Positions 29,092 to 44,094 of a stretch of 64,000 bases of DNA are shown piece by piece. Both the position numbers and the translations under genes were made by a program. The stretch's first letter is position 1. Every line of letters starts with the position of its first letter. This DNA comes from Ruegeria arenilitoris (GTDB lineage Bacteria; Pseudomonadota; Alphaproteobacteria; Rhodobacterales; Rhodobacteraceae), in the NCBI RefSeq assembly GCF_013032855.1, contig NZ_WQDA01000001.1, forward strand, positions 627,501 through 691,500, read 5' to 3'. Under the pieces are notes generated by a model. The model worked only from the letters and a program-made list of their open reading frames with translations, made no database searches and was not told the origin of the DNA.

Positions 29092-29094
29092 GGG

Positions 29095-30630
29095 TCAGAG
29101 ACTCTCCAGGAACCGGATCAACGCATCGCGGTCGGGTTTGGGCATGGAAACGACTGCATCGCGCGCGGCCTGGGCCTCGCCGCCGTGCCACAGGACCGCT
29201 TCGAGAAGCGAGCGCGCCCGGCCATCATGCAGGAACTGGGTATGCCCCGAGACCCGTTCGGTCAGGCCGATGCCCCACAGTGGCGCGGTACGCCATTCGC
29301 GGCCCGTGGCGCGGGCCTCGGGGCGGTTGTCGGCCAGTCCCTCGCCCATGTCGTGCAGCAGCAGGTCCGTGTAGGGCCAGATCAGCTGGAAACTGTGCTC
29401 GGGCCGGTCGGGCAGACGGTGGGTGACGAAAGCAGGCGTGTGACAGGACGCGCAGCCAATGGTGTGGAAAACCTCTTTCCCGCGCAGAACTTGCGGGTCA
29501 TCCACATCGCGGCGGGCGGGAACGCCCAGGTTGCGGCTGTAGAAGGCCACCAGATCCATGCCCTGCTGGTCGATCTCGAAGCCGCGCTCGTCGCCGTCAC
29601 CATGCGGGGCGGTCTGGCAATCGGCCTGGGCCGGGGTGCAGTCGCCAAATGGCGCGGGGTAGAGCGGGCTGGAAATGCCGATATCGCCGGCGAAGGCCGC
29701 GGCCGACTGCTCCATGATCGTCGGCATGCCCGCCTTCAGCCCGAACCGGCCCAGCATGGGTTCGCCGAATTCCGTCGACCACACGATGTTGGGCCGCCCC
29801 GAGATCCCGTCCCCATCGGCGTCGTCGGGGTCGGCCTTGGCCAGGATGTCCTCGGCCGGGATCGCCTCGAGCAGGCCCAGACCGATCATCTGCGGCGCCA
29901 CGCGTGGGCTGAGCATCGCGTCCGGGTGCAACGGCCCATAGCCCAGATCGGCCGCTCTGTAGGTGGGCTTGCGCAGCGACACGGCTTCGCCGTCGGACAG
30001 TTCCACCGGGATTTCCTCGTAGGTGATGTCCAGCCGGTATTCGGCCTGGTGGCCGGGCAGGGCGAAATCCTGCATCTGGCCGCCATAGGTGGGTTCGGGC
30101 AGGGTGGCGAGATACCCCGCGATCTCCTCCGGCGCGTCCGCGGGCGTTCCGGGGATGGAAACGCGCAGGAACATCGAAATGGCGTTGTCTTCGGGTCCGG
30201 CCGGGGTGTGGCCACGCCCGTCCTTGATGTGACAGCGTTGGCACGACCGGGCGTTGAACAGCGGCCCTAGCCCATCCGAGGCCAGAGTCGAGGACGGAGA
30301 CGACACCCAGACCTTCTTGAACAGCCCGTTGCCGACCTTGAAATCCAGCTCCTGCTCAAAGCTCAGGTTGGCCGAGGGTTGCGAGAACGCATCCGCATCG
30401 GTCCGGGCGCGCACCGTCGCGGCGCCTGCCGGCAGGTCCTCATAGCGCTGGGGCTGCGTGAAATCCGACGGCGCTGCGGTGACTGTGGCGATCCGTGCCC
30501 GTTCAGCGTCGGTTCGGGGGAGGGGGTTCAAATGACTGTCCCGCAGATCCTGAGACAGGGAAGGGGTGGCCGCAAAAACGGCCACCACGAAGAGGCCCGT
30601 CTTATTCGGCCTCGTCCATTTTCGATGCAT
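29095..30630 (-). CDS. Di-heme c-type oxidoreductase (DUF1111 family)
   Basis: About 511 residues from ATG 30630, giving a Sec signal peptide (basic [10 protein letters not shown], hydrophobic core, cut near SLSQ). An upstream in-frame ATG at 30642 is an alternative, as neither has a good ribosome site. Two CXXCH heme sites: CQRCH (Cys130-His134) and CASCH near residue 400, in a peroxidase/MauG-related fold. It should be periplasmic and may oxidise or reduce iron for the adjacent imelysins. It overlaps the end of bfr by 29 bp, so translation is probably coupled. Confidence 0.82.
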
Positions 30631-31087
30631 TGAGTTGCGCATAATTTGCTTCGCCGAGTCTTTCGTACAGATCGAGCTGGGTTTCGAGGAAATCGATATG
30701 GCCTTCTTCATCGGCCATCAGTTGTTCGAACAGCGCCATCGACACGAAGTCGCCGGCCTGTTGGCAGTATTCGCGCGCTTCCTTGTACAGGGCCCGGGCG
30801 TCGATCTCGGCCGCTAGGTCGCATTCCAGCGTTTCCTTGGGCGTCTGGCCGATGCGCAGCGGGTCGAGCTTTTGCAGGTTGGGGTGGCCGCCGAGGAAGA
30901 TGATCCGCTCGATCAGCTTGTCCGCGTGCTGCATCTCTTCGATGCTTTCCTCGCGACTTTTCTTGGCCATGTGGCCCAGGCCCCAGTCCTCCTGCAGGCG
31001 GTAATGCAGCCAGTACTGGCTGACTGCGGTCAATTCATGCCGCAGGGACTTGTTTAAGTATTCGATGACTTTGGGGTCGCCCTTCAT
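30602..31087 (-). CDS. bfr: Bacterioferritin
   Basis: 161 residues from ATG 31087 (AGGAG eight bases upstream). Ferroxidase ligands are all present (Glu18, Glu51, His54, and the later Glu/His pair of [12 protein letters not shown]), and Met52 is the heme axial ligand, so this is a heme bacterioferritin. It stores iron as a mineral in a 24-mer. The start lies 53 bp inside the bfd gene and the end runs into the di-heme gene, making a tightly overlapped bfd-bfr-DUF1111 unit. Confidence 0.95.
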
Positions 31088-31328
31088 CTGCAATCTCCTG
31101 TGTATCATCCACGCGCAGGGCGCGGAGTTGCATGGGTACTTCGAGGTTATCGGTTGCGCGCATCGTGTCCAGAAACAGCGGCATACACCCGCCACAATCC
31201 GCCGATTTTCCCAAAGCATGGTAAATCTTGCCCGGCGTGATGATGGTTTGAGGATCTGCCGCGCGCATCCAGTCGATTGCCGCGCGGATCTCGTGATCCG
31301 TGATGTTGGTGCAGTGGCAGACGATCAT
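31035..31328 (-). CDS. bfd: Bacterioferritin-associated ferredoxin
   Basis: 97 residues, longer than the usual ~65. The N-terminal Bfd domain binds a [2Fe-2S] cluster through Cys4, Cys6, Cys45 and Cys48 (MIVCHC and ADCGGC). Bfd reduces the Bfr core through heme to release Fe(II). The ~40-residue C-terminal extension (from about [10 protein letters not shown]) is encoded largely by sequence that also contains the bfr ribosome site and first 17 codons in another frame, a 53-bp overlap. A candidate iron-responsive palindrome lies 23 bp upstream. Confidence 0.9.
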
Positions 31329-31350
31329 GGCGACTCGGCCTTTCGTAATT

Positions 31351-31367
31351 CCTAGTCAAATAGTAGG
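31351..31367. promoter_or_regulatory. Imperfect palindrome upstream of bfd
   Basis: CCTA at 31351-31354 mirrors TAGG at 31364-31367, with matching inner T/A positions, in an AT-rich stretch just upstream of bfd. It may be an iron-regulator site (Irr, RirA or Fur), but it does not clearly fit a known consensus. Confidence 0.25.
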
Positions 31368-31444
31368 GTATTTGCTTCGGGTCCAGACACAGCTTGTCGC
31401 AGGGTCGGGCGCAAGCGGTCGCTGCGCCCGGCTGCTTTGGTTCA

Positions 31445-32716
31445 TCAGTGGAAAACGGCGTCGGGGTTGTCGAGGCTGTCGGACCCTTCGAATGCGACAT
31501 TGCCCAAGCCCAGCACGGACACGATACGTTCGATCGTCTTGGTCTGATCGATCAGACCTTCGACACCGCCCATGATCAGCGTTTCGCCACCGACGTTCCC
31601 GCGCTCGAGCATCTGATCGTAGGCTAATCCGGCCTCGGCTGCGGTTTTGATCTGGCCTAGCGCGTACATTGTGTTGGCCAGCTTTGTCTTCATCTCGGTG
31701 TCCAAAGCCGGGTCCGAGGCCGCAACCAAATCCGACAGGGACGGACCCGAAACCGGAGTGCCGTCAATCCGGACATACCGACCCAGATAGACGTTCTGAA
31801 TCCCCAACCCGTCATAGTAGTGGCTGTTGTGCGTGTTGTCCGAGAAACAGTCATGCTCTTCTTCCGGGTCGTTCAGCATCAGTCCAAGGCGCATGCGCTC
31901 ACCGGCCTGTTCGCCATAGGACAGGGATCCCATGCCCGTCAGAATTGCACTGATGCCCGAGTCGGCGTCGTTGGTCAGGGCCGCCCGCGCGGCACCGTCG
32001 TCCTGCCATTGCGCGGCCATCCACTCCAGATCCGAGACCAGCAGGTCGGTCGCCGCCACCAGATACTGGGCCCGGCGATCGCAGTTGCCGCCGGTGCAGG
32101 ACTCGTCCTGCGCATAGTCGGTCCACGGACGGTTGCCGGCGCCCTCGCCGTGACCGTTCAGATCCTGGCCCCACAGCAGGAACTCGATGGCGTGATAACC
32201 CGTTGCCACATTGGCCTCGATTCCGTCGGCCTCGTGCAGGGTCTCAGACAGCAGCTCGGGCGTGATCTCGGTGGCGTCGACCGGCTGGCCAGACAGCTCA
32301 AAGCTGGGCGAGGCAATCACGTTCAGAACCGCAAGCTCGTTTTCGTCCGTCGCGCCGCCATAGGCCGCATCCACATAGTCGATCAGACCCTCGTCCAGAG
32401 GCCACGCGTTCACCTTGCCTTCCCATTCGTCGACGATGGGATTGCCGAAGCGATAGACCTCGGTCTGTTGATACGGAACGCGCGCGGCAACCCAGGCCTG
32501 GCGTGCGGCGGTCAGGTTTTCAGCAGAAGGCTGGTCAACCAGCGCGGCAACGGCGGCCTGCAACTTGCGGGCAGCACGCAGGCTGTCGTCATATTTTGCT
32601 TCGGCAATGTCAGCATAGGTGTCCAGAATGTCGACCTTTGCGGGCGCGTCGCCGGCGGCTGCCGCCGTTGCCATCAGCAAAGCTGCCAGGCTGGTCGTCG
32701 AAAATACGCGGGTCAT
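31445..32716 (-). CDS. Imelysin-family periplasmic iron-regulated protein (IrpA-like)
   Basis: 423 residues with a Sec signal peptide (MTRVFSTTSLAALLMATAAAAG). The GxHxxE motif of imelysins is present as GYHAIEFLLWG, and family blocks VYRFGNPIVDEWEGKVNAWP, DCFSDNTHNSHYYD and GQDLNGHGEG match IrpA/insulin-cleaving membrane protease relatives, which bind iron rather than act as proteases. Periplasmic. It is the first gene of the iron cluster. The gap to bfd is 116 bp, so bfd may have its own promoter. Confidence 0.88.
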   Translation of the reverse strand: MTRVFSTTSLAALLMATAAAAGDAPAKVDILDTYADIAEAKYDDSLRAARKLQAAVAALVDQPSAENLTAARQAWVAARVPYQQTEVYRFGNPIVDEWEGKVNAWPLDEGLIDYVDAAYGGATDENELAVLNVIASPSFELSGQPVDATEITPELLSETLHEADGIEANVATGYHAIEFLLWGQDLNGHGEGAGNRPWTDYAQDESCTGGNCDRRAQYLVAATDLLVSDLEWMAAQWQDDGAARAALTNDADSGISAILTGMGSLSYGEQAGERMRLGLMLNDPEEEHDCFSDNTHNSHYYDGLGIQNVYLGRYVRIDGTPVSGPSLSDLVAASDPALDTEMKTKLANTMYALGQIKTAAEAGLAYDQMLERGNVGGETLIMGGVEGLIDQTKTIERIVSVLGLGNVAFEGSDSLDNPDAVFH

Positions 32717-33000: not shown

Positions 33001-33519
33001 ATGAGATCCCTGGCGTTTGCCCTTTGCGTGTTTCCCCTTGCGTTGGACGCGCAGCAGGAAGTGGCGCCAAAACCCGCAGCACTGAAGATCGCCTTTTTGG
33101 ATTCGGGGTACACGCTGTCCCTGTCTGTTCCTGCGTCAGAAATCGTTGGCTTTGAGCTTCCCGCTTCGAGCGCAGAGGAAAAGGCGAAGGTCGCGGTCGC
33201 CATTTCGGACCTGTCACAGCCCATGACCCTGTTCGCGGTCACGGCCGAGGCGGGTTGTGCCACGGCCACGGCGAACGTGGCGCTGGTCGGCGGCGAAGCC
33301 GGTTCGGCCTTGGGGTCTGACGATCACCGGCCCGAATTTCAGGCCGAATATACGGTCAGGTGCAGCAACCTTCAGGCGCTTGGTGAAATGAGATTTGATT
33401 ACTTCGACCGGTTTTCGCAGGCTGAACGTGTGGACGTGCGGGTTCAATCCTCGGGCGGTAGTCACGCCGTCGCGGTTACACGCGAGACCCCGTTGGTTGA
33501 TCTCTCCGAGTTGATGTGA
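33001..33519 (+). CDS. DUF2796 / ZrgA-like zinc-uptake-associated protein lacking the His-rich segment
   Basis: 172 residues from ATG 33001 (a GTG directly before it is an alternative). A short signal peptide (MRSLAFALCVFPLALDAQ) precedes a domain with the ZrgA pattern LSLSVPASEIVGFELPASSAEEKAKV, then a Cys pair (AGCATA and RCSN) and RFDYFDRF. ZrgA-family proteins usually carry His-rich metal-binding stretches (HxHG repeats); here almost all His are gone. The role is probably periplasmic, but zinc binding is doubtful. It diverges from the iron cluster across a 284-bp gap. Confidence 0.65.
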   Translation: MRSLAFALCVFPLALDAQQEVAPKPAALKIAFLDSGYTLSLSVPASEIVGFELPASSAEEKAKVAVAISDLSQPMTLFAVTAEAGCATATANVALVGGEAGSALGSDDHRPEFQAEYTVRCSNLQALGEMRFDYFDRFSQAERVDVRVQSSGGSHAVAVTRETPLVDLSELM

Positions 33520-33531
33520 CCGGGGTTTCTT

Positions 33532-34497
33532 TCATTCCTTGTGGTGAAAGATGAAGCCGATGAAGTTCAGCAACAGCTGCGCGGCAAGGATCTGCGTGCT
33601 TTCGGTCGGGTCATAGGCCGGGGCAACTTCGACAAGGTCGATGCCGGCAACCTGCCCTTTCCGGGCAAGGCCCTGCAGGATTTCCAGAACGTCGTAGTAC
33701 AAAAAACCGCCGTGGCTTGGTGTTCCGGTGCCCGGTGCAATGGATGGGCAAAACGCGTCAATGTCGATGGTCACGTAGTATCGGACGCCCGAGGGGATGC
33801 GGTCCAACACTCCTTCGGTCCCCAGCTTGCGGACCTGCCGTACCGACAAGATGTCGGAGCCGCGCGCGCGTGCATCTTCGTAACCTTCTTTCGCCGTCGA
33901 TGAGACGTTGCGGATGCCCAGCTGGGTCATACCCGAGACATAGTCCTTCTCGATCGCCCGCCGCATCGGGTTTCCATGGCCCGCCGTAACGCCATGACGC
34001 TCGTCCACGAAATCCAGATGTGCGTCGATCTGGACCACGTGAATGGGACCGTTTCGGGCGCAGTCCTGATCAAAGGCGTTGATGCAGGGAATGTTGATGG
34101 AATGGTCACCACCGATCGTCACGGGCAGAGCGCCGGCCTCAAGGATCTTGCGCACCCCGTATTCGATATTCGCGTGGCTGGCTTCGGTTTTGGTGTGGAT
34201 GATGTCGGCATCCCCCAGATCGACGATGCGCACCTCTTCGCCCAAATAGGTGGCATCGTCCTCGTGATCATAAGCACCTGCATGACCAAAGCTGAACAGA
34301 GTCGATGCCTCGCGCACCGCACGCGGGCCGAACCGGGCTCCGGACCGGTATTGGCAGCCGAAGTCGAACGGGGCGCCCAGGATGGCGACATCGGCATCGA
34401 TCTGGTCCCAGTCCTGCACATATGGCTTCTTGCCGAATGTGGCGATGCCGACGAACGGCAGATTCAGGCGGCCGGATTCATATCCATGTTTTGACAT
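33532..34497 (-). CDS. Agmatinase-family ureohydrolase (second paralogue)
   Basis: 321 residues from ATG 34497, with GGAG seven to ten bases upstream; the frame stays open to 34725 but has no ribosome site and no family match there. Mn-binding motifs are GGDHSINIP, DAHLDFVDE and TIDIDAFCPSIAPGTGTP. The length and the SGARFGPRAVREAS segment fit the agmatinase/guanidinobutyrase/proclavaminate-hydrolase branch, distinct from the shorter enzyme at 21626. Substrate could be agmatine, 4-guanidinobutyrate or guanidinopropionate. It stands alone, convergent with the ZrgA-like gene. Confidence 0.82.
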   Translation of the reverse strand: MSKHGYESGRLNLPFVGIATFGKKPYVQDWDQIDADVAILGAPFDFGCQYRSGARFGPRAVREASTLFSFGHAGAYDHEDDATYLGEEVRIVDLGDADIIHTKTEASHANIEYGVRKILEAGALPVTIGGDHSINIPCINAFDQDCARNGPIHVVQIDAHLDFVDERHGVTAGHGNPMRRAIEKDYVSGMTQLGIRNVSSTAKEGYEDARARGSDILSVRQVRKLGTEGVLDRIPSGVRYYVTIDIDAFCPSIAPGTGTPSHGGFLYYDVLEILQGLARKGQVAGIDLVEVAPAYDPTESTQILAAQLLLNFIGFIFHHKE

Positions 34498-34847
34498 TGG
34501 GGGCTCCGTTGCTTTGAACCGGCCGCGGGTCTGGCGGGTTGCTTGCACGTTGGCGTCTATCACCCGATCAATCAAGGCCGCTCTGCCCCAGCGGTGCATC
34601 AGATTGCGAAGCTGGGTAAACCCCACAATCCCAGTGATTTTTCTGCCAATCTGTACTAAGAATTCAGGTATCGCTCGTATTGCCTGCGCAAATTGAGGGG
34701 TGGAGCCAGCATTGAATGGCGCCACGCGTCGGGCGGTCTGCCGTTTGTCCGGCGGGGGAGACTACAAAGTACAAATGCTGATTTCAGGAAAGTGACCACG
34801 AAATACGAAACCATTGCGCCACTGACTTTTTGGGGGAGGAACTGGCC
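34498..34847. other. Gene-free region upstream of the multidomain protein
   Basis: 350 bp between two divergent starts. The half next to the ureohydrolase stays open in its frame but has no start signals. The other half ends in a purine-rich ribosome site (GGGGGAGGA at 34832-34840). I could not identify a convincing promoter, terminator or small gene. Confidence 0.5.
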
Positions 34848-37800
34848 GTGTCCACACAGACGATTTCCAATTCAAAACCGATTGAAGCCACATCTGCCGA
34901 TTGGGAGAAGATATTCGCCGTCCTGCCCGGCGAAAAGGTGCGGCAGAGCGCCGAGCGGCTCAGGCAGCATTTCGATCTGTTCGAAGTTCTAGAGGACACG
35001 GTACTACCGCCGCGCGGGATGTATGTGGTTTTGGACGGCATCGTGAAGCTGCGCCAGAACGACGTTGATCTGGCGACCGCCGATACCGGGGACTATTTCT
35101 ACGAAGAGCATCTGGAGATCCGCGACATACCGGTCAGCCTGCAGGCCGTGGCCTTGCCCGGCACTCGGCTGGCCTTTCTGGCCAGTAACGAGTGGCTGGA
35201 TATTCCCGCGGAAATTCGACGCGAATGCTACGCCACGCTGTTCGGCGATCTGGTCAGCGTGCATCTTCAGAATTTCCAGCAGCCGATCAACTGCTGCAGC
35301 GTGACCGCGGCCGCGCTGAGCATGTCGGCGCTGGGCTTCAGCTGCGAGGTGAACGACATCTTCCGCGTCTGCGAACTGCCCACCAGCTTTGTCGTCAATG
35401 ACGGCATCTCGCTGGGTGAACTGTTCGACGTGGCGTGCACCTATATCCATTCGCAGGGTCTGCGCGACCTTGTGCAGGTCCAGGCCTACTTCATGGACGA
35501 GGCGACGACCTCGGTGCCGCTGCTGCTTGAGGCGATTGACGAATCCAATCGACTGGGCGGAGACAACGATATCCTGGTGGCGAATTTTCAAGTTGGGGTC
35601 GCGCATGGCAAGCCCACCATGCCCGGCGGCCATTTCGCGGTGATCGCCAAGTGCAACCCCAGCACCGGGTTGGTGCACATGATGGATGTGCATCCCGAAA
35701 AATACGGCAAGCTGTGGGTCACCACGATCGACCGCCTGTACGCGGCCATGTCCGACCGCGACGGCACTTCGATGCGCGCGCGCGGGCTGCTGCGGTTCTC
35801 GGCGCGCGAAGCGGTCAAGACCACGCTGCAGACCTTCCGGCAGGACTGCAACTATGTGGACAGCACCAGGTATCTGGCCCGCGATCCCAAGAAGCGCCGC
35901 AACCTGTTCCGGCGGGCCAGCCCGAACATGAACAGCCTGGGCGTTCTGGCCGAAAGCCTGCAGATTTTGGGCGATGTCCAGGTCACCGAAGACAAGCTGC
36001 TGATCGCGACCCAGACCTCGTACACCGAGGCGCTGAGCCGCGTTTCGACCGCCAAGAAGATGAGCGAGATGGCCCAGCGGTATCTGGCCGGCACCTCCGA
36101 AGTGCATATCGGCAGCACTTTCCGCAGCTATGCGGAACGACCCGGCAAGGACAAAAGGTCGCCGCAAGACTGGTTCCGGGATCAGCTGCGCAGTCTGAAC
36201 GAACATGAGGGGCGCCACCTTATGATCAATATCGACTTCAACCGCGTGTTGGGGTTCGAGGTGATCCGGCCGCCCGAAAACGTGTTCCGCGAGACGGCGC
36301 TGCTGGAAGAGTTCTGGTGCCTGTGCGTGGCCTATGACGAGAAGGCCGACCTTGTCACCGTCGTAGATATGAGCCCGGCGACTTCGCAGGTCTGGCAGGC
36401 GCCGCGCGGGCAAATCTTTCGCGGGCTACGCGACCTGAAAAGCCCGGCCATGCTGGTGATCGAGGAGACCCAGCCCCCGGAAGACCCCAGCGACGTGGCT
36501 CGGATCGTCCGGGAAAACCCGCTGGTTCTGTTCTACGAGGATGAGGACCCGTGGTCGAACATGCTGAAGAACATTCTGGCCAATATCGGCGCGACCGGTC
36601 TGAAATTGGTCGATGTCGCTGGACACGGGGCCAACGCTATGAAAATGCGCCGGCAACTGGTGGCGGAAAGCGGCAAGGAAAAGGTGCCTTATCTCTTCTT
36701 CCATGGGAAATGCCTGGGCAAGCGCAGCGATATCGTTGACATGATCCTGGATGGCGGCCTGCAGGAAGACATGAAGAAAGCCGGTCTGCCTGTCTTGCTG
36801 CGCCACGAGTCGCCGAGCCTCGACAAAAACATCTTCGGGTATCCCAAGGGCGGGTTGACAGCCCCGCCAAACGGTCGCCGGAACGTTCTGCTGTGCGCCT
36901 GCGGCTCGTCGGCTGCGGACAAGGTGCCTCAGTTGGTCGCCCGGATCACCGAGGCTGGTCACAACGTGAAACTGATCCCTTCGGTTTCGGCCGAAAAGTT
37001 CTTTCGCGATATTGGGACCGACAAGGCCAGCGAAGCCGGCAAGGCAAAAAAGACCGGGAAGAAAAGCAAGACAGTCGACGACTACATCACCCACAATGAC
37101 TACTACCGCGACGATGACGAGTGGAACTTTCGCTATACCGAGTTCGGAATGCCCTTGCGCGCCTCGCATCTTGCGCTGTGCGACTGGGCCGATTGCGTCA
37201 TTGTCGCGCCGGTCACCTGCAACACGATGGGCAAGATCGCCAATGGCATTGCCGACAACCTGCTGACCTCAGTCTTTGTGGCCTGGCAGTACCGCAACAA
37301 GCCGGCGATCCTTTGCCCGGCTTGCAACACCAACATGTGGAACAACGTCACCACCCAGAACAATGTCGAAAAGCTGCGGGATCTGGGGATTGATCTTGTG
37401 GGTCCCCGCAAAGGGCGCCTTTCGAACGGAATGATGGGCATCGGCATGATGGCCACGCCCGACCAGATCATGGAGGTGTTGGAAGAAGCCTTCGAAGAGC
37501 TGGAAAACCACGAACACAATATCTGCAAATGGGCGCAGGATGCTGCGGCCTCGGATGACTTCGCCCAATGGGAGCCGGTGTTTCAGGCCATAGATGAGGG
37601 GGTCGCCGGTATCGACATTGTCGATGACCATAATGGTGACACGCTGCTGCACTATGCGGCGGGCGGCGAGGGCGAGCTGACCGAGAACGGGCAAGATCTG
37701 GGAAAACCGGACATCGAGGCTGCCAAAGCCCTCATCGCAAGAGGTATCAACGTGAACGCGGTCAATGACCACGGATTTACCAGCCTGCATGTCGCCGCGA

Positions 37801-38516
37801 TGAACAACTCGGCCGAGATGGTAGAAACACTGCTGGCGGCGGAGAGCATCGATGCAAGCCCTCTGATCCACTTCCTGCAGGATCGGGTGCGGTCCAGGGG
37901 CATCAGGGTGTCGGACGAGATCCGCGCGATGCTGGACGAATGGGCCAACACGCACGCCCTGTCAGAACCGGAAGAGGTGGAAGACGAAGACGACCTGATC
38001 GATGAACGCGAAAAGACCTATCTGTATTTTACCTACGGATCGCTCAAAAAAGGATTTCCCAACCACGACGCTCATGCGGACGTTCTGGATGATTTCGTTG
38101 GACAGGCGGTCACTCGGCAGCCCATGCCCCTGATCGTTCCGAAAGAGCCGTTTTGCGACAACCCGAACTGTGCCTATCTGCACCGCATGGCCACACTGGT
38201 GGATCGCAAGGGCACTGGCCGTCCAATCAAGGGCGAGGTCTACCGGGTCACCTCGGGCGGGTTGAAGGAACTCGACAAGCTCGAGGGTTTTCACGGACCG
38301 GGCGCGGCTGACAATGTCTATGTCCGCAAGCGGATCAATGTCCTGATGGATGGCGTGAAAAAACCGGCCTACGTCTACGTCATCGCCAATCCGGAAAAAT
38401 ACCTTGCCGAACTGGAAAGCGGTGCGTCCGAGTTGGTCGACGAATACTCGATCGACATGGCCACCGGAACGCTCAAGCCCGGGTATGAGGCGGCCGCTAG
38501 CCGTCCTGATGCGTGA
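34848..38516 (+). CDS. Multidomain protein: cNMP-fold, phytochelatin synthase, glutaredoxin-fold, PPCDC/HAL3-like, ankyrin, GGACT-like
   Basis: 1222 residues from GTG 34848, seven bases after GGGGGAGGA. Domains: cyclic-nucleotide-binding fold (~18-128) with an atypical phosphate cassette; phytochelatin-synthase-like peptidase (~140-318) with candidate triad Cys149/150 (NCCSVTA), His262 (GGHFAV), Asp280 (MMDVHPEKYG); a second, degenerate copy (~365-540) with VVDMSP but no His; glutaredoxin fold (~557-650) lacking the CxxC; HFCD flavoprotein of eukaryotic PPCDC/HAL3 type (~678-885) with His774, APVTCNT and PACNTNMW; two ankyrin repeats (~929-999); and an AIG2/GGACT cyclotransferase domain (~1057-1205) with YGSLKKG and Glu1130 in PIKGEVY. 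No membrane helix. Most parts act on gamma-glutamyl-cysteine chemistry; the whole is unrecognised. Confidence 0.85.
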   Translation: MSTQTISNSKPIEATSADWEKIFAVLPGEKVRQSAERLRQHFDLFEVLEDTVLPPRGMYVVLDGIVKLRQNDVDLATADTGDYFYEEHLEIRDIPVSLQAVALPGTRLAFLASNEWLDIPAEIRRECYATLFGDLVSVHLQNFQQPINCCSVTAAALSMSALGFSCEVNDIFRVCELPTSFVVNDGISLGELFDVACTYIHSQGLRDLVQVQAYFMDEATTSVPLLLEAIDESNRLGGDNDILVANFQVGVAHGKPTMPGGHFAVIAKCNPSTGLVHMMDVHPEKYGKLWVTTIDRLYAAMSDRDGTSMRARGLLRFSAREAVKTTLQTFRQDCNYVDSTRYLARDPKKRRNLFRRASPNMNSLGVLAESLQILGDVQVTEDKLLIATQTSYTEALSRVSTAKKMSEMAQRYLAGTSEVHIGSTFRSYAERPGKDKRSPQDWFRDQLRSLNEHEGRHLMINIDFNRVLGFEVIRPPENVFRETALLEEFWCLCVAYDEKADLVTVVDMSPATSQVWQAPRGQIFRGLRDLKSPAMLVIEETQPPEDPSDVARIVRENPLVLFYEDEDPWSNMLKNILANIGATGLKLVDVAGHGANAMKMRRQLVAESGKEKVPYLFFHGKCLGKRSDIVDMILDGGLQEDMKKAGLPVLLRHESPSLDKNIFGYPKGGLTAPPNGRRNVLLCACGSSAADKVPQLVARITEAGHNVKLIPSVSAEKFFRDIGTDKASEAGKAKKTGKKSKTVDDYITHNDYYRDDDEWNFRYTEFGMPLRASHLALCDWADCVIVAPVTCNTMGKIANGIADNLLTSVFVAWQYRNKPAILCPACNTNMWNNVTTQNNVEKLRDLGIDLVGPRKGRLSNGMMGIGMMATPDQIMEVLEEAFEELENHEHNICKWAQDAAASDDFAQWEPVFQAIDEGVAGIDIVDDHNGDTLLHYAAGGEGELTENGQDLGKPDIEAAKALIARGINVNAVNDHGFTSLHVAAMNNSAEMVETLLAAESIDASPLIHFLQDRVRSRGIRVSDEIRAMLDEWANTHALSEPEEVEDEDDLIDEREKTYLYFTYGSLKKGFPNHDAHADVLDDFVGQAVTRQPMPLIVPKEPFCDNPNCAYLHRMATLVDRKGTGRPIKGEVYRVTSGGLKELDKLEGFHGPGAADNVYVRKRINVLMDGVKKPAYVYVIANPEKYLAELESGASELVDEYSIDMATGTLKPGYEAAASRPDA

Positions 38517-39714
38517 TCGCCTCGGGCGCATCCGTTGACGGAGGTGACTTGAGGCTGAGGTTGTAGGCGGTGATCGCGATCATGCAGCTCAGGACAAAAG
38601 GCCAGAACGCGGCCTTTGGAATCAGGTTGTCATGATAGTGGATCAAGCGGAGTGACGGCGCGGACTCGGAGACGAACAGATAGGTGTTCACCGAGACCAC
38701 AAGCAGCATGAAGTACATCAGGAAAAAGAAGGACTCCATGTAGATCACTGGTGACCCGGCAAAACCCTCGCGCAATTGCACATGGGCCAGCAGGATCACG
38801 AAGAAAAGGACCGAGCAGGTGCCGATCACGCTTGAGGTGCTGAAATCGTGCCGTTCGACCAGGTTCGGCTTCCGCGTCACCGTCATTACGGCGCCGAACA
38901 GAAGCATCGTGACTACGATCAATGGGATCATGTGCACCACGAAGGCGTTCGCAAAATTGCGTTTTATGACAAAGTTGTAGTGCAGCTCGGGCAGTCTGGT
39001 CTGAAACTCGTTCTGGTTGATGCCCAGCGTCGTGTCCAAATCAGACAGCTTGTAGTCAAAATAGGTATTTTCGCGTTCCCAGGTGCCCATGACGATGCGG
39101 TTGTCGATCCCGAAGATGTCCTTTGGCCCAGTCGCGGGATAGGCGTCGAAGTCGGGAACCAAGGCGACGTTCACGTCAAACCGGCCCGGCCAGAACCGCA
39201 CCCAGACGGTTTTGTGGTCGAAAGGATAGCTGGTGTAGTCGAAGGACTGGCGCAGGGTCTGCTCAAAGTACCAGCCGATCACTTCACCACCGGGTTCTGG
39301 CATCCGGTAGGCTTCTTCGATAAGGCCGCTCCCGACATCCACGGACTCGGGCAGAAGGAACCCGGCCTGACCGGGTTCGGGTTTGATCGCGTCATGGACG
39401 CCGGTTTGATAGTGTTGCCAGACATAGCCCGTGACGTGGATATCGCTTGCATCGACGAAACTGAAGGATTTGAGGAATATTCCCGTCCTGACCCGATAAT
39501 CCGGCGCGTTCTCCAGCGACTCCAGATAGGAATCGACCGAGGCCTGATCCGGCAATTGGGTCGGGTCCTGCTCGAAATGGTTCAGCGATGCCCAAAGGTA
39601 GAACAATACGGCCGTCAGTATCAGCGACACGAGGCCTGACAGGCCCCAGACCTTTTTCTCGACCGTCATTCCGCGCCCTGTTTCTTCGTGTTGTTCTATC
39701 GTCATGCGGTTCAT
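38497..39714 (-). CDS. Pentameric ligand-gated ion channel (Cys-loop receptor) homologue
   Basis: 405 residues. An N-terminal helix (about 22-45) acts as signal or anchor. The extracellular region (~50-260) contains YTSYPFDHKTVWVRF, matching the YPFDxQ loop of pLGICs, without the eukaryotic disulfide. Then FVIKRNFANAFVVHMIPLIV opens TM1, followed by TM2 (SSVIGTCSVLFFVILLAHV), TM3 and a C-terminal TM4 (AAFWPFVLSCMIAITAYNL), the pLGIC four-helix layout. Its ATG overlaps the cyclase stop (ATGA), so it is co-translated with the cyclase. The end overlaps the convergent multidomain gene by 20 bp. Ligand and ion are unknown. Confidence 0.7.
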   Translation of the reverse strand: MNRMTIEQHEETGRGMTVEKKVWGLSGLVSLILTAVLFYLWASLNHFEQDPTQLPDQASVDSYLESLENAPDYRVRTGIFLKSFSFVDASDIHVTGYVWQHYQTGVHDAIKPEPGQAGFLLPESVDVGSGLIEEAYRMPEPGGEVIGWYFEQTLRQSFDYTSYPFDHKTVWVRFWPGRFDVNVALVPDFDAYPATGPKDIFGIDNRIVMGTWERENTYFDYKLSDLDTTLGINQNEFQTRLPELHYNFVIKRNFANAFVVHMIPLIVVTMLLFGAVMTVTRKPNLVERHDFSTSSVIGTCSVLFFVILLAHVQLREGFAGSPVIYMESFFFLMYFMLLVVSVNTYLFVSESAPSLRLIHYHDNLIPKAAFWPFVLSCMIAITAYNLSLKSPPSTDAPEAITHQDG

Positions 39715-42700
39715 GCCGTCGGTTGACCGGCCATCCCGGCCACCGGAAAATCCAGATGCCCCATCAACGACCGCACCACGCCCAGATCGTCGAACTGTGA
39801 TCGAAGTTCTGGAAACTCGGCGTGGTCAGACAGGGCGAGGCCCTGTTGCCCGGTCGCAGCCAGAAGGCGCGTGTGACGGATGGACAGATCGGCCATCGGC
39901 AGCGGTTCTGGGGCGGTGAACTCGGACAAGGCGTCGGCAAAGCGGATCGCGCGGTCCCAATCCTGGCGGGCCAGCATCACGGCGCATGCATCTGCGTAGA
40001 AATGCAAGTGGCTATGCCCAACGCAGCCTTCACCCAGTATCCTGACGCCCTGATCCAACAAATCATCCTGGGCATCCGGATCGTCCAAAGCCAAGGCCAA
40101 TGCCGACAGTGCCTTGGGGCCGACAAAGTTGCGGCCATGTTCCAACGCGATTTCCACGGCGCGGAGCCCCACCTGTTCAGCCTCGTGCCTTTGCCCGGCA
40201 TACACCTGCGCCCGGGCCAGATGTTCCAGCGCCTGAGCCTCGAGTCGCTTGGCACCGACGCGCTGGGCGATATCGGCGGATCGGATGAAGGCCTGCAGCG
40301 CGCCGTCCATGTCATCCTGAAAGGTGCACGCGACGCCCAAGCAGGTCTGCGCGACACATTCCGGTACGAATGCAAAGTACTTCTGCGAGATTTCGATGGC
40401 TTCCTGCGCGTCGGCCCGACCTTGCTCCACGTCACCTGAGTAACTGCGGGCGACACTGAGATTGTGAAGGTTGGCGGCCAGGTCCCGGACCAGTCCTTTG
40501 TCCCGCGCTCTTTCGACGGCCTGAGTGTAGAACCCTGCGGCGGTGCGCATGGCGGCATTCATGAAATTCGCATCGCCAAAGCCGCTGAGGGCGCCGACCT
40601 CCAGCCGGACGGATTCCAGTTTGCGCGCCAGCGTCAGTGCTTTTTCGTTGCTTTGCAGAGCATCCGCGACCCGTCCCAATGGGAAATAGATGTTTCCGCG
40701 AACATAGCTGATCTGGGCCAGATCCCGTTCCGATCCGATACGTTCAGCGGCGGCCTCGGCGATGTTGAGGCTGTGCAGCGCATCCTGGTACAGGCTGGCC
40801 TGGCGTGCGGCTTGTGCAAGACCGATATGAACGCGGCAAATCTGCGCGTCAGTCTCGGCCAAGGCAGCGGCTTCGTTGAACTCGCTCAGGGCCTCGTCCG
40901 ACAGGCCCTGAAGTCGATGGGTTTCCGCGCGGGCACACATCAGGTCAAACCGGATACCCGGCGGCGCCGAAAGCTCGAGCGCGCGTTCGATCAGCGGGCT
41001 GGCCTCGTCAAACTGGAAGGCCTGGATCAGGTTTTCGGCGGCCTCCAGATAGGCTTCGGCTGCGTTTGAGGCGTCGGCACGGTCCAGGTGTTGGGCGCGC
41101 AAGGTGGCGTCCTTGCCCTCGTACCAGCTTGCTGCCTGCCGGTGCAGTCGGGCGCGCTCGGACTTGACCAGTGTCGCATAGGATCCGTCGCGGATCAGAG
41201 CATGCGCAAACATCAGATCTGCCCCGGCCTCGCGGATCAGGGCCGAGCGGATCAGGTCGGACGTGTCCAGATGGCCTTCACCCAGCAGATAGTTCAGAAC
41301 TTCGGGCGAGAACCGCTGCCCCAGAACCGATGCTGCCTGAATCGCCGTTCTGCTTCGACGATCCAACCCGTCCAGACGGGATTGCACGATGCCTTGGATG
41401 CTGCCGGGGACGGTGTCGCGGGTCAGGCCGTCGATATTGCGCAGCAGTTGCTCGAGAAACAGCGGATTGCCTCCGGCGCGTTGCACGCAGGTTTCCAACA
41501 GCTCGGGGTCGATGGCGGTGAATTCTTCGACCAGTTTCCGCGCCTGTTCGTCGCCCATCGGCGAAAGCTCAAGCTTGGACACCAGCGCACCGTCCGTTCC
41601 CATCTGCCATTCCCGATCGATCGGGTCGCCTTCGACCCGGCTGGTCATCATCAGAACGCAAGGCAGGTCCCGCGTCGCGGCAGCCATGTAAGAACACATG
41701 GTCAGAATGTCCGGTGGCGCCCAATGTATGTCCTCGACCTGGAGCAGAAGGGGGGCCTCGCGGCTGCGGGCCTGCAGCAGTTCGTCGATGACCTGTCGCC
41801 GACCCCGCATGCGTGCGGCGTTGTCCATCGCGGCATAGACTTCGGCCAATCCGGGATCCTGTTCAAGTTCGAGCAAAGCGTTCAGATGGGCTGAACTGGC
41901 AGGGTTGATCCACCCCCGGTTGATCGCGTCATGAGCGGCCGCGGTGCTGGCATCGGAGTCGTCGATCGGGTCGAGCCCCAGAAGGCTGCGGGCGATGGAC
42001 TGGATGGCCGAATGTCCCTCGCGTGTGCCGAAATCCATCACCACGCCCCCGTGGATCGAATAGGAGCGGTTTGCGGCCAGCTCGGCCACCTGTTCCGAAA
42101 AGTGGGTCTTGCCGATACCGGGTTCGCCAAGAATGATGTGAACCTCACCCTTTCCATGGCGCTGGCACCGGTCGAATGTTGCCGAGAACAACGACATCTC
42201 GCGTTCCCGCCCGATGAATTTGTGGCGCCGCGTGCGGATGTTCCGGGCCAGGCGGTCCAGACGCCAGATTTCGACATCCTTATTCAGGCCTTTAATCGCT
42301 TTGGTGCCGATCGCCTCGCCCACGAACAGAGGGCCAAGCGCGCGCTGAATATCATCCGACACCAACGTTTGACCCGGCGCAGATATGTCGGTCAGGCGGG
42401 ACGCAAGATTCACGCCGTCCCCGGTCACGGTGTATTCGGTATGGGCCTCGCTTCCGGTGGTGCTGGCGATGACCTGCCCTGAGGCGATGCCGATATGGCA
42501 GGACAGGGGCGGGTCAAGTGTGGGCAGCGCGGCGTGAATCTCCAACGCAGCCCGGGCCGCCCGTTCGGTGTCGTTGGTGTGCGAGATCGGCGCCCCGAAC
42601 ACCGCCATGACAGCGTCTCCGATATGCTTGTCGATCCGGCCTCCAAATTTCTCGACGGCGCGGTCGACCTTGCCAAAGAACGCATTCAGCAGCGCGTGCA

Positions 42701-43010
42701 TGTCTTCGGCGTCGTGTTCGCTGGACAATTTGGTAAAGCCGGTCAGGTCCGCGAACAGAACCGTGACCTGCCGTTTTGCCGGCTCCAGTTCGACCTCGGG
42801 TTCAAATGCGCCGACGTTGTCCGGGACGTCCAGCTCGGATATCGCGCGCAGCAACCGGCGACGGTCGCCGACGGCGGTCACTCCGATCTCGCGCAAATCC
42901 TCGCCCGTAAGTTCCGGAAGAATTGCAAAGTCGATTTTGTTTTCCGCGAACGCTTGGGTGTAATCGGACAACCCAAGGGCGCTCAGCCATTCCCGTAGGT
43001 CGCCAGACAT
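39711..43010 (-). CDS. Class III adenylate/guanylate cyclase with SAM, AAA ATPase and TPR domains (second paralogue)
   Basis: 1099 residues. SAM domain (1-60); class III cyclase (~80-225) with metal Asp88 (LFADLTGFT) and Asp132 (IGDAVMAVFG) and transition-state residues Asn201 and Arg205 (GVNLASRL), so catalysis is plausible; AAA ATPase with Walker A GEPGIGKT (295-302) and the LLLQVEDIHW Walker B; then long TPR helices. Same architecture as the protein at 7657-10971, with both catalytic Asp at the same residue numbers. Cytoplasmic. It is first of a two-gene unit with the channel homologue and is divergent from napF. Confidence 0.92.
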   Translation of the reverse strand: MSGDLREWLSALGLSDYTQAFAENKIDFAILPELTGEDLREIGVTAVGDRRRLLRAISELDVPDNVGAFEPEVELEPAKRQVTVLFADLTGFTKLSSEHDAEDMHALLNAFFGKVDRAVEKFGGRIDKHIGDAVMAVFGAPISHTNDTERAARAALEIHAALPTLDPPLSCHIGIASGQVIASTTGSEAHTEYTVTGDGVNLASRLTDISAPGQTLVSDDIQRALGPLFVGEAIGTKAIKGLNKDVEIWRLDRLARNIRTRRHKFIGREREMSLFSATFDRCQRHGKGEVHIILGEPGIGKTHFSEQVAELAANRSYSIHGGVVMDFGTREGHSAIQSIARSLLGLDPIDDSDASTAAAHDAINRGWINPASSAHLNALLELEQDPGLAEVYAAMDNAARMRGRRQVIDELLQARSREAPLLLQVEDIHWAPPDILTMCSYMAAATRDLPCVLMMTSRVEGDPIDREWQMGTDGALVSKLELSPMGDEQARKLVEEFTAIDPELLETCVQRAGGNPLFLEQLLRNIDGLTRDTVPGSIQGIVQSRLDGLDRRSRTAIQAASVLGQRFSPEVLNYLLGEGHLDTSDLIRSALIREAGADLMFAHALIRDGSYATLVKSERARLHRQAASWYEGKDATLRAQHLDRADASNAAEAYLEAAENLIQAFQFDEASPLIERALELSAPPGIRFDLMCARAETHRLQGLSDEALSEFNEAAALAETDAQICRVHIGLAQAARQASLYQDALHSLNIAEAAAERIGSERDLAQISYVRGNIYFPLGRVADALQSNEKALTLARKLESVRLEVGALSGFGDANFMNAAMRTAAGFYTQAVERARDKGLVRDLAANLHNLSVARSYSGDVEQGRADAQEAIEISQKYFAFVPECVAQTCLGVACTFQDDMDGALQAFIRSADIAQRVGAKRLEAQALEHLARAQVYAGQRHEAEQVGLRAVEIALEHGRNFVGPKALSALALALDDPDAQDDLLDQGVRILGEGCVGHSHLHFYADACAVMLARQDWDRAIRFADALSEFTAPEPLPMADLSIRHTRLLAATGQQGLALSDHAEFPELRSQFDDLGVVRSLMGHLDFPVAGMAGQPTA

Positions 43011-43199
43011 TGGTGCCCTCAGAAGTATCCACCCGCAGGCAGCCTAGTACAGACCACCGGGTCGAGTCTGCATTTTTTATAGTAATATTCGATTATGACT
43101 GCGCAATCCGCCGTTTCCGGGTTTTCGGATCAGCTTTGTGTCGCGCCTTTCCAGAGTTGTGTTTCAGGAAGGATTCGTTTGCTCAATCCATGAACAAAT

Positions 43200-43213
43200 C
43201 TGATCAAGATCAA
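43200..43213. promoter_or_regulatory. FNR/FnrL box upstream of napF
   Basis: CTGATCAAGATCAA matches the FNR consensus TTGAT-N4-ATCAA at nine of ten defined positions. It lies 79 bp upstream of the napF ATG. A class II promoter would put the -10 near GCTATC at 43234-43239. This predicts oxygen-responsive induction of nap. Confidence 0.7.
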
Positions 43214-43291
43214 GTCAGAGTTGACTCGTATCCGCTATCCACGCAGCATGAACGGAGTACCACAAATGTTTCTAGAACAGGTGGGCGGCAC

Positions 43292-43804
43292 ATGTCTGCA
43301 GTAGCCAGCAGGCGCGCGTTCCTGACGGGACGCCTGCCTCGCGAAGACGACAGCGTGAAGCGGCCGCCAGGAGCGGCGCGCGAAAACTTCCACGATCTCT
43401 GCACTCGATGCGGCGACTGTGTCTCGGTTTGTCCCGAGGAAGTTCTGGCTATGGACGACGCGGGCTTGCCGGTGTTTCAGCCGCAGCAGGGTGGCTGCAC
43501 CTTTTGCGGAGACTGCGCCGACGCGTGCAAGACCGACGCATTGAGCCTGGACCGGTTCGCCGAGTGGCCGTGGCGCGCGAAAGTGTCCGACACCTGCCTT
43601 TCGGCAAATGGTGTCAGTTGCCGGGTGTGCCAAGACAGCTGCGATCAAGGGGCCATCCGATTCCGCCTGAAAACCGGAGGCCGTGCCGAAGTGAACCTGG
43701 ACTTGGCATCATGTGTCGGTTGCGGAGCCTGTTCGGCCGCATGCCCGACCGGTGCCGTTTCCCTTGAGAGATACCAGCCCGCCACAGTGGAGGTGCATGA
43801 ATGA
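43292..43804 (+). CDS. napF: Ferredoxin-type protein NapF
   Basis: 170 residues starting MSAVASRRAFLTGR. Four-cysteine clusters for [4Fe-4S] centres are CTRCGDCVSVCP, CTFCGDCADAC and CVGCGACSAACP; a further Cys group (CRVCQDSC) lies before the last. NapF is a cytoplasmic iron-sulfur protein thought to help insert or reduce the clusters of NapA before export. The ATG at 43292 was chosen from the family start; the frame is open further upstream into the promoter region. It opens the nap operon and overlaps napD (ATGA). Confidence 0.92.
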   Translation: MSAVASRRAFLTGRLPREDDSVKRPPGAARENFHDLCTRCGDCVSVCPEEVLAMDDAGLPVFQPQQGGCTFCGDCADACKTDALSLDRFAEWPWRAKVSDTCLSANGVSCRVCQDSCDQGAIRFRLKTGGRAEVNLDLASCVGCGACSAACPTGAVSLERYQPATVEVHE

Positions 43805-44094
43805 ATATCTGTGGATGCCTCGTGCATGTCGCGCCGGACCAGACCTCGGCAGCACGGTCGGCGATGACTGCGTTTGACGGGGTCGAGGTCCATGCCGAAT
43901 CCGACGACAGCCGGTTCGTTGTCGTTGTCGAGGACACGCCGACACGGTTGGCGTCCGAGATCATCATGGACCTGCACCAGATCCCCGGGGTCGTCTCGCT
44001 GACCCTGACCTATCACCATTTCGAAGATCTCGCGGAGACCCGTCCGCGTCCTGAAACTCCCAGCCAAGATTCCAGCCGGAGGCCCTTGTCATGA
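43801..44094 (+). CDS. napD: NapA chaperone NapD
   Basis: 97 residues with the NapD ferredoxin-like fold start [11 protein letters not shown], the HAES segment, and the conserved [15 protein letters not shown]. NapD binds the Tat signal peptide of NapA and holds it until the molybdenum cofactor is loaded. The gene overlaps both neighbours by 4 bp (napF and napA), consistent with coupled translation. Confidence 0.93.

What the first reader, a model, noticed from the sequence alone, without database searches (positions are those of the whole stretch)
34848..38516. 1222-residue fusion of phytochelatin synthase, glutaredoxin fold, PPCDC/HAL3-like decarboxylase, ankyrin and GGACT-like domains
Seen: in one continuous frame there is a cNMP-like fold, a phytochelatin-synthase module with a Cys-His-Asp set whose His-to-Asp spacing (18 residues) equals that of plant PCS, a glutaredoxin fold, an HFCD flavoprotein closer in motif to human PPCDC and plant HAL3 than to bacterial CoaBC, ankyrin repeats and an AIG2/GGACT domain. 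Known: each domain family separately acts on glutathione, gamma-glutamyl or cysteine compounds. I know of no characterised protein with this domain order.
Basis: partly seen in the sequence, partly recalled or inferred. Interest (0 to 1): 0.92.

Follow-up and report, generated by a model that had tools for sequence, protein, structure and literature searches.

The report
Seven-module glutathione enzyme in signalling cassette
A marine bacterium encodes one very long protein that strings together enzymes that could take glutathione apart step by step, usually sitting beside a neurotransmitter-receptor-like channel and a second-messenger enzyme; the arrangement seems to be undescribed and points to an unknown sulfur-metabolism or stress-signalling system.

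Summary
One uninterrupted frame (GTG 34848, stop 38516, 1222 aa) carries a CNB (cNMP-type) fold, a phytochelatin-synthase (PCS) module with intact Cys150-His262-Asp280, a glutaredoxin-like module, an HFCD flavoprotein, ankyrin repeats and a GGACT domain. It is no frame error: 67 of 70 listed relatives carry the PCS, HFCD and GGACT domains together.

(1) A seventh module: a second PCS/papain-like fold that has lost the catalytic Cys and His. (2) The glutaredoxin-like module has no active-site Cys, and the CNB lacks the phosphate-binding Arg, in 45 of 45 aligned rows. (3) The HFCD is a distinct subfamily: PPCDC's oxidative residues are kept, its reductive Cys is Asn, and two new motif Cys are invariant. 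(4) The gene is one third of a cassette: of 54 genomes of the genus, the same 31 carry the fusion, a pLGIC-type membrane protein and a STAND adenylyl cyclase side by side; the other 23 lack all three at the thresholds used, save one 42%-identical cyclase.

Best mechanism (inferred): PCS, HFCD and GGACT act in that order on glutathione, giving glycine, CO2, 5-oxoproline and a C2 aminothiol. None of the papers listed by my searches describes it.

The parts
34848..38516 (+). fusion protein, 1222 aa, GTG start; Shine-Dalgarno-like GGGGGAGGA at 34832-34840
34884..35255 (+). CNB (cNMP-type) fold, residues 13-136; phosphate-cassette Arg position is Val96, 0 of 45 rows Arg; Glu87 in 41 of 45
35265..35813 (+). 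catalytic phytochelatin-synthase module, residues 140-322; Cys150, His262, Asp280 in 45 of 45 rows
35880..36482 (+). second, degenerate PCS/papain-like module, residues 345-545 (Cys to Asn362, His to Phe489, Asp507 kept)
36495..36782 (+). pseudo-glutaredoxin, residues 550-645; CPxC position is D567-P-W-S570, cis-Pro614 position kept in 45 of 45
36825..37517 (+). HFCD flavoprotein, residues 660-890; His774, Asn827, Met830 kept; Cys791, Cys826, Asn860 invariant and family-specific
37605..37850 (+). ankyrin repeats, residues 920-1001
38025..38408 (+). gamma-glutamylamine cyclotransferase (GGACT) domain, residues 1060-1187; YGSLK 1063-1067, Glu1146 = human Glu82; C1103-x4-C1108-x3-H1112, the two Cys in an 11-residue insert relative to human GGACT
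38497..39714 (-). pLGIC-type membrane protein, convergent with the fusion (3' ends overlap by 20 bases); one N-terminal hydrophobic segment, ~206-residue outer region, about four C-terminal hydrophobic segments
39711..43010 (-). SAM - class III adenylyl cyclase - AAA (STAND) - TPR protein, overlaps the membrane-protein gene by 4 bases

Best explanation
A real seven-module protein with three catalytic modules (PCS, HFCD, GGACT) and four accessory ones (CNB, degenerate PCS, cysteine-less glutaredoxin-like, ankyrin). The catalytic modules stand in the order of a plausible assembly line on glutathione: (1) PCS hydrolyses GSH to gamma-Glu-Cys + glycine, as the free-standing bacterial homologue NsPCS/Alr0975 does; (2) the HFCD module, with FMN, oxidatively decarboxylates the now-exposed C-terminal Cys of gamma-Glu-Cys; (3) GGACT, a family named for gamma-glutamylamine substrates, releases 5-oxoproline and a C2 aminothiol (aminoethenethiol, or cysteamine if the new Cys791/Cys826 pair supplies the reduction that AtHAL3a does with Cys175). 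The pseudo-PCS and pseudo-glutaredoxin would bind glutathione or regulate. In roseobacters the protein is the metabolic arm of a three-gene cassette with a pLGIC-type channel and a STAND adenylyl cyclase. Shown here: modules, residues, gene linkage and co-occurrence. Inferred: every reaction, the substrate, the order of action and the regulation.
Against: No activity, substrate or cofactor is shown. The reductive Cys of PPCDC is Asn in 45 of 45 and PxMN is PxCN, so the HFCD chemistry may differ. The canonical cNMP-binding Arg is absent in 45 of 45, which weakens direct gating by cAMP. Six SAR116/Rhodospirillaceae-type loci and L060 have no cyclase or channel gene on the DNA held; for L060 and L054 several kb on both sides are held, so the cassette is not universal. 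No CDO_I thiol dioxygenase found in the genome, so a cysteamine-to-hypotaurine sink is unproven. The full-length model has pTM 0.49, so module arrangement is unknown. The pseudo-PCS is not always less conserved than GGACT. The word 'glutamylcysteamine' occurs in none of the papers searched: the proposed intermediate has no known biology there.
Confidence: 0.4

Rival explanations
1. Redox rather than decarboxylation: the HFCD module has become a cysteine-lined flavin thiol-disulfide (or metal) centre, so the protein senses or reduces glutathione-type disulfides or metals, with PCS and GGACT trimming glutathione.
For: Cys685, Cys791, Cys826 in 45 of 45 rows, Cys778 and Cys783 in 44, Cys823 in 43, Cys683 in 41; Cys791 and Cys826 are absent from all 35, and Asn860 from all 34 that align there, of the canonical HFCD rows P0193-P0227; a pseudo-glutaredoxin lies next door.
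Against: All three residues of the oxidative decarboxylation step are kept in 45 of 45; I saw no precedent.
Confidence: 0.22
2. Metal- or electrophile-stress enzyme: the PCS module makes gamma-Glu-Cys or phytochelatins, the degenerate second PCS module is its regulator (as a C-terminal domain is in plants), and the rest recycles products.
For: Intact PCS triad; plant PCS has a C-terminal domain involved in metal responsiveness (passages of PMC7586750); a ZrgA-family zinc-uptake gene lies at 33052-33516.
Against: Of 41 loci only L022 has a ZrgA relative nearby (43%); among the recurrent flanking clusters whose sequences I printed none looked like metal resistance by eye; it does not explain HFCD or GGACT.
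Confidence: 0.17
3. Second-messenger-activated effector of a defence-like (Pycsar- or CBASS-like) system that depletes glutathione when the STAND cyclase is triggered.
For: STAND ATPase-cyclase beside a CNB-fold enzyme; PADLOC PycC models match the cyclase domain (best 4.1e-19); patchy, all-or-none distribution.
Against: PycC hits cover only the class III catalytic core; Lys128 is kept in 32 of 33, which I recall as adenylate-specifying; the CNB phosphate Arg is absent in 45 of 45; the padloc hit on the fusion is ankyrin only (4.6e-4); recurrent flanking clusters look like ordinary metabolism and transport by eye, but were not scanned for defence genes.
Confidence: 0.1
4. The protein is a largely non-catalytic scaffold or regulator, like the Hal3-type regulatory flavoproteins.
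For: Three of the modules look degenerate (CNB, second PCS, glutaredoxin-like); ankyrin repeats; Hal3 precedent (PMC9604783, passages and abstract start).
Against: Catalytic residues are invariant in PCS, HFCD (oxidative set) and GGACT, and PCS and HFCD are the most conserved modules against 6 of 7 relatives.
Confidence: 0.06
5. Frame error or chimeric assembly joining separate genes.
For: None found.
Against: 67 of 70 listed homologues share the fusion; 31 of 54 genus genomes carry it near full length, the latest-starting match beginning at residue 35.
Confidence: 0.01

Closest known systems
Alr0975 / NsPCS, the primitive single-domain phytochelatin synthase of Nostoc
   Different: Free-standing; here one of seven modules, followed by a degenerate second copy.
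AtHAL3a / human PPCDC / EpiD-type HFCD flavoproteins
   Same: Fold and oxidative-decarboxylation residues His90, N142, M145 (H774, N827, M830).
   Different: Cys175 replaced by Asn860; PxMN is PxCN (Cys826); SANT-type motif is [TS]CN[TS] (Cys791); several further conserved Cys; fused.
Human/mouse gamma-glutamylamine cyclotransferase (GGACT, 3jub/3jud/1vkb)
   Same: Y-G-[ST]-L-K, P-N-H and catalytic Glu82 = Glu1146; Foldseek 8.7e-8 to 1vkb.
   Different: An 11-residue insert with two Cys (C1103, C1108, 43 of 43 rows that reach it); fused to HFCD-Ank.
Pro-loop receptors (pLGIC; GLIC)
   Same: The L044 partner protein matches 4x5t (proton-gated channel/GLRA1 chimera) at E 0.0055, its only PDB match at E up to 10; Pro-loop Pro164/Asp166, pre-M1 Arg252 and M1 Pro264 in 14 of 14 rows, 12 distinct sequences.
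   Different: No Pfam match for the window copy at E up to 10 and no PDB match of the alignment at 0.1; linked to a cyclase and a thiol-acting fusion; one copy carries a Cache/PDC sensor.
Pycsar (PycC cyclase + CNB effector)
   Same: A class III cyclase beside a CNB-fold protein.
   Different: STAND-type cyclase with adenylate-type Lys; CNB lacks the phosphate Arg; the neighbour is a metabolic fusion.

Membership tests
phytochelatin synthase (PF05023) | Cys-His-Asp catalytic triad | tested here: met
   C150, H262, D280 in 45 of 45 rows
phytochelatin synthase (PF05023) | PCS fold and profile score over cut-off | tested here: met
phytochelatin synthase (PF05023) | gamma-Glu-Cys hydrolase or transpeptidase activity | not testable with these tools
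   needs enzymology
phytochelatin synthase, second module (345-545) | catalytic Cys and His | tested here: not met
   Asn362 45 of 45; Phe489 43 of 45, Tyr 2; the Cys equivalence rests on the hhalign alignment and model, the His equivalence on my ungapped register back from Asp507, where hhalign has a gap
HFCD / PPCDC | fold and profile over Pfam cut-off | tested here: met
   93.4 vs 22.7 bits; 1mvn Foldseek 7.7e-13
HFCD / PPCDC | oxidative-step residues His90, N142, M145 | tested here: met
   H774, N827, M830 45 of 45; roles from PMC9604783 passages
PPCDC | reductive Cys175 | tested here: not met
   Asn860 45 of 45
PPCDC / CoaBC | PxMNxxMW motif | tested here: not met
   PACNxxMW; Cys826 45 of 45; NCBIfam coaBC 118.2 vs 219.7 bits
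GGACT (PF06094) | YGxLK motif and catalytic Glu82 equivalent | tested here: met
   Y1063-K1067 and E1146 in 43 of 43 rows that reach it, 2 rows truncated
glutaredoxin (PF00462) | CPxC or CxxS active-site Cys | tested here: not met
   D567-P-W-S570 in the window; position 567 D42 G2 A1, position 570 S45, no Cys; register judged by eye from the recalled CPYC motif
glutaredoxin (PF00462) | thioredoxin-like fold with cis-Pro | tested here: inconclusive
   Pro614 45 of 45; profile scores below curated cut-offs; not fold-searched alone
cyclic-nucleotide-binding domain (PF00027) | CNB fold | tested here: met
cyclic-nucleotide-binding domain (PF00027) | phosphate-binding-cassette Arg | tested here: not met
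   position 96: V33 I4 T3 M2 L2 D1 of 45, no Arg; equivalence judged by eye against the recalled CRP cassette
pLGIC / Pro-loop receptor (gene 38497-39714) | Pro-loop Pro and Asp, pre-M1 Arg, M1 Pro | tested here: met
   P164, D166, R252, P264 in 14 of 14 rows, 12 distinct; features from PMC4795631 passages; positions assigned by me
pLGIC / Pro-loop receptor (gene 38497-39714) | sequence-profile match | tested here: inconclusive
   L044 copy vs 4x5t E 0.0055; A4 profile no PDB match at 0.1; no pLGIC Pfam family among matches of the 14 members at E up to 10
class III adenylyl cyclase (gene 39711-43010) | two metal Asp, Asn and Arg, substrate Lys | tested here: met
   D88, D132, N201, R205 33 of 33; K128 32 of 33, Arg 1 (split L050 copy not in the set); role assignment recalled
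Pycsar | cyclic-nucleotide-binding effector with intact CNB cassette | tested here: not met
   no cassette Arg; PycC similarity confined to the cyclase core

The most novel reading that the evidence does not exclude
A signal-controlled assembly line in which one polypeptide converts glutathione to a C2 aminothiol (cysteamine or aminoethenethiol) plus 5-oxoproline, glycine and CO2, wired to a neurotransmitter-receptor-type channel and a STAND adenylyl cyclase: a new route of thiol metabolism and, as far as I know, the first bacterial pLGIC with a dedicated enzymatic output. A Grx-HFCD-Ank-GGACT version of the same enzyme may exist in microbial eukaryotes.
Probability: 0.25. Interest if true: 0.93.

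Novelty: categorically new. Interest (0 to 1): 0.8.

Why it matters
If right, it opens three questions at once: a glutathione-to-aminothiol pathway not going through coenzyme A; a new HFCD subfamily with a cysteine-lined flavin site; and the physiological role of a bacterial pLGIC, here given a genetically linked second-messenger enzyme and metabolic output. The all-or-none cassette in Ruegeria-type bacteria (31 of 54 genomes), with carriers among named cultured strains (record titles), makes each question directly testable by deletion and metabolomics. The component families are known; it is the system that I call new.

Tried and rejected

Literature: searches listed no paper on the fusion or the cassette. 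I saw the listings only: 3 of 3, 0, 9 of 9, 12 of 20, 8 of 10, 8 of 117, 3 of 3 and 10 of 1,506 papers, so searches are weak evidence; subscription papers are mostly not held.

Limits: alignment A1 uses 44 of the 69 non-self hits, chosen to thin near-duplicates; A4 uses 13 loci plus the window out of 41 cluster-1 references (L001 is the window itself), 12 distinct sequences. The ORF caller hid the fusion of L040 and the channel genes of L040 and L043 behind antisense ORFs; (tblastn) supersedes it for counts. In some searches absence means no match at E 1e-40 (fusion), 1e-10 (membrane protein) or 1e-100 (cyclase, 14 candidates scored per genome at most). Class sample: 1 of 385 genomes, the window's own. 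The tree is a quick one and warns of long branches (L060, L058).
Full report
WHAT IS THERE. The frame 34848-38516 (+) is open and continuous, 1222 aa. A strong Shine-Dalgarno-like GGGGGAGGA at 34832-34840 supports GTG 34848 over the upstream TTG. Pfam places PCS at 148-313, HFCD at 679-877, ankyrin repeats at 920-1001 and GGACT at 1060-1187, all above curated cut-offs; glutaredoxin and cNMP are sub-threshold, with a glutaredoxin profile at 1.7e-5 in NCBIfam, also below its own cut-off.

IT IS NOT AN ARTEFACT. A search of about 5.8 billion proteins (the 7993 candidates sharing most words were scored) listed 70 relatives, the window's own copy included. 67 of them list PF05023, PF02441 and PF06094 together; the other three lack one (P0070 is labelled partial by its source, P0068 and P0069 are shorter). 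Named genome records with near full-length matches include Ruegeria, Seohaeicola, Roseivivax and Roseibacterium, and MAGs labelled Roseovarius, Rhodospirillaceae, Aestuariirhabdus and Halieaceae; a SAR116 record (L053) holds residues 242-1214 up to its contig end. Against seven relatives, at 29-99% module identity, dN is below dS in every module where dS could be computed (against L044 dS was saturated in six of seven modules). Nearest by tree are R. intermedia and 'Silicibacter' lacuscaerulensis at about 92%, so the window is from a Ruegeria-type roseobacter (inference).

WHICH MODULES LOOK ALIVE. Counts on 45 rows: PCS C150/H262/D280 45/45. HFCD H774, N792, N827, M830, W831 45/45. GGACT YGSLK and E1146 43/43 (two rows truncated). 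The glutaredoxin CPxC position is D567-P-W-S570, with no Cys at either end in any row; Pro614 45/45. The CNB phosphate-cassette Arg position is V/I/T/M/L/D, never Arg; Glu87 41/45. Module identity to L040 runs PCS 0.88, HFCD 0.72, GGACT 0.65, Ank 0.61, pseudo-PCS 0.59, pseudo-Grx 0.58, CNB 0.46. PCS and HFCD are the top two against 6 of 7 relatives (L022 has the pseudo-PCS second); GGACT is third against four, ties for third against L034 and falls behind the pseudo-PCS against L023. So the modules with intact catalytic residues tend to be the most conserved, PCS and HFCD clearly, GGACT less so.

A DISTINCT HFCD SUBFAMILY. In AtHAL3a, His90, N142 and M145 serve the oxidative decarboxylation and Cys175 the subsequent reduction (passages of PMC9604783). 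Here the first three are kept and Cys175 is Asn860 in 45 of 45. Cys791 (in place of Ala in SANT) and Cys826 (in place of Met in PxMN) are also invariant. Of 35 canonical HFCD relatives (P0193-P0227) none has Cys791 or Cys826, and none of the 34 that align there has Asn860. All three are found in the fused relatives aligned there (P0070-P0074, P0076-P0082, P0048, P0064, P0069) and in the short or fragmentary P0190-P0192; P0075 has Met at 826, and P0085 and P0228 do not align at the sites. P0073, P0074 and P0191 come from a eukaryotic-transcriptome source. A second family-specific element is C1103-x4-C1108-x3-H1112 in GGACT (each 43 of 43): the two Cys lie in an 11-residue insert relative to human GGACT, the His aligns with a human His.

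THE CASSETTE. Downstream and convergent lie a membrane protein (38497-39714) and a SAM-cyclase-AAA-TPR protein (39711-43010), which overlap each other by 4 bases. In 54 genomes of the genus the fusion occurs in 31, the membrane protein in the same 31, and the cyclase beside them in the same 31, plus one 42%-identical cyclase in G160, which has neither other gene, and lower-identity extra paralogues in four carriers. In 120 family genomes fusion and membrane protein occur in the same 3. Among 41 fetched loci the membrane protein is found in 32 and a homologue of the whole cyclase protein in 33 (in L050 as two ORFs). L044 (Aestuariirhabdus MAG) keeps all three but reordered and co-directional; L058 keeps a cyclase just upstream of the fusion. 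Neither partner is found in six SAR116/Rhodospirillaceae-type loci (L047, L048, L053-L056) or L060, some on short contigs but L054 and L060 with several kb on both sides. Flanking genes differ between groups of carriers, so the cassette sits in several chromosomal contexts. L061 (record title: uncultured cyanobacterium MAG, unverified) carries a split version: OsmC, FIST, a GAF-class III cyclase, an unknown ORF, then Grx-HFCD-Ank (488 aa; the Grx part by alignment, not by Pfam) and GGACT (162 aa) as overlapping ORFs. This is a different kind of cyclase gene beside the same module set.

THE PARTNERS. The cyclase keeps D88, D132, N201, R205 in 33 of 33 rows and K128 in 32 of 33, and so is predicted active; Lys at that position is recalled as adenylate-type. 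The membrane protein has one N-terminal and about four C-terminal hydrophobic segments around an outer region of some 206 residues. Its L044 homologue, which adds a Cache/PDC-type sensor, matches 4x5t (proton-gated channel/GLRA1 chimera) at E 0.0055, the only PDB match at E up to 10. The features that define Pro-loop receptors (Pro-loop Pro and Asp, pre-M1 Arg, M1 Pro; passages of PMC4795631) are kept in 14 of 14 rows, 12 distinct. Against this, the A4 profile finds no PDB entry at E 0.1 and no pLGIC Pfam family appears among matches at E up to 10. I call it pLGIC-type, probably a true member.

HOW IT MOST LIKELY WORKS. NsPCS/Alr0975 converts GSH to gamma-Glu-Cys + Gly (passages of PMC12065762). 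gamma-Glu-Cys exposes a C-terminal cysteine carboxylate of the kind HFCD enzymes decarboxylate in PPC or peptides (EpiD, entry title). The product would be a gamma-glutamylamine, the substrate class that gives GGACT its name (PDB titles; substrate range otherwise recalled). The N-to-C order of the three intact modules is the order of this pathway. The genome has glutathione synthetase and a separate CoaBC-sized HFCD ORF, so the HFCD module is probably free for such a role. Whether the product is the enethiol (no Cys175) or cysteamine (reduction by the new cysteines) is open. How the channel, the cyclase and the CNB module control the enzyme is open too; the missing cassette Arg argues against simple cAMP gating. 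All catalytic steps are inferred.

COMPARISON AND NOVELTY. Each catalytic module belongs to a known family (membership table). The seven-module order, the HFCD subfamily and the three-gene cassette appear in none of the papers listed; I saw listings and abstract openings only, and searches showed 8 of 117 and 10 of 1,506 papers. Passages were read of PMC7586750, PMC12065762, PMC4795631, PMC9604783 and PMC7794376 (the last for HFCD background).

Noticed in passing
28081-32716 (-): Iron-uptake-like block: two imelysin-domain (Peptidase_M75) proteins, a di-haem oxidoreductase (DHOR), and by eye a bacterioferritin and its ferredoxin partner (the last two not scanned); of 41 loci only L021 and L022 share the imelysins and DHOR.
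   Followed up: partly
33052-33516 (+) and 33532-34725 (-): ZrgA-family zinc-uptake protein (Pfam; below the NCBIfam cut-off), and an arginase-family ureohydrolase over the NCBIfam agmatinase cut-off (182.5 vs 174.3 bits), divergent from the fusion.
   Followed up: partly
42923-46580 (+): NapF- and NapA-type genes of a periplasmic nitrate reductase start right after the cyclase gene.
   Followed up: no
P0073, P0074, P0191 (eukprot source), P0076: Eukaryotic-transcriptome entries (and one JGI protein) with HFCD-Ank(-GGACT) and the same Cys/Asn signature; the P0074 N-terminus looks EF-hand-like by eye, though Pfam did not report it. Possible microbial-eukaryote branch, or contamination.
   Followed up: partly
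L061:4024-9937: Operon-like run OsmC - FIST - GAF/class III cyclase - unknown 195 aa ORF - Grx-HFCD-Ank - GGACT, a split version of the fusion next to another cyclase type.
   Followed up: partly
L050:6100-9520: The cyclase homologue appears as two ORFs (369 and 776 aa), perhaps a frameshift in this MAG.
   Followed up: no
L054:15309-16368, also L048: A small cupin-like ORF (by eye; no Pfam match) and a TauD/TfdA dioxygenase ORF about 7 kb downstream of the fusion; both sequence clusters recur in L048. Possibly thiol or taurine related, possibly chance.
   Followed up: partly
G000:C5:291927-298873: Glutathione synthetase and the separate CoaBC-sized HFCD ORF of this genome lie within 7 kb of each other.
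   Followed up: no
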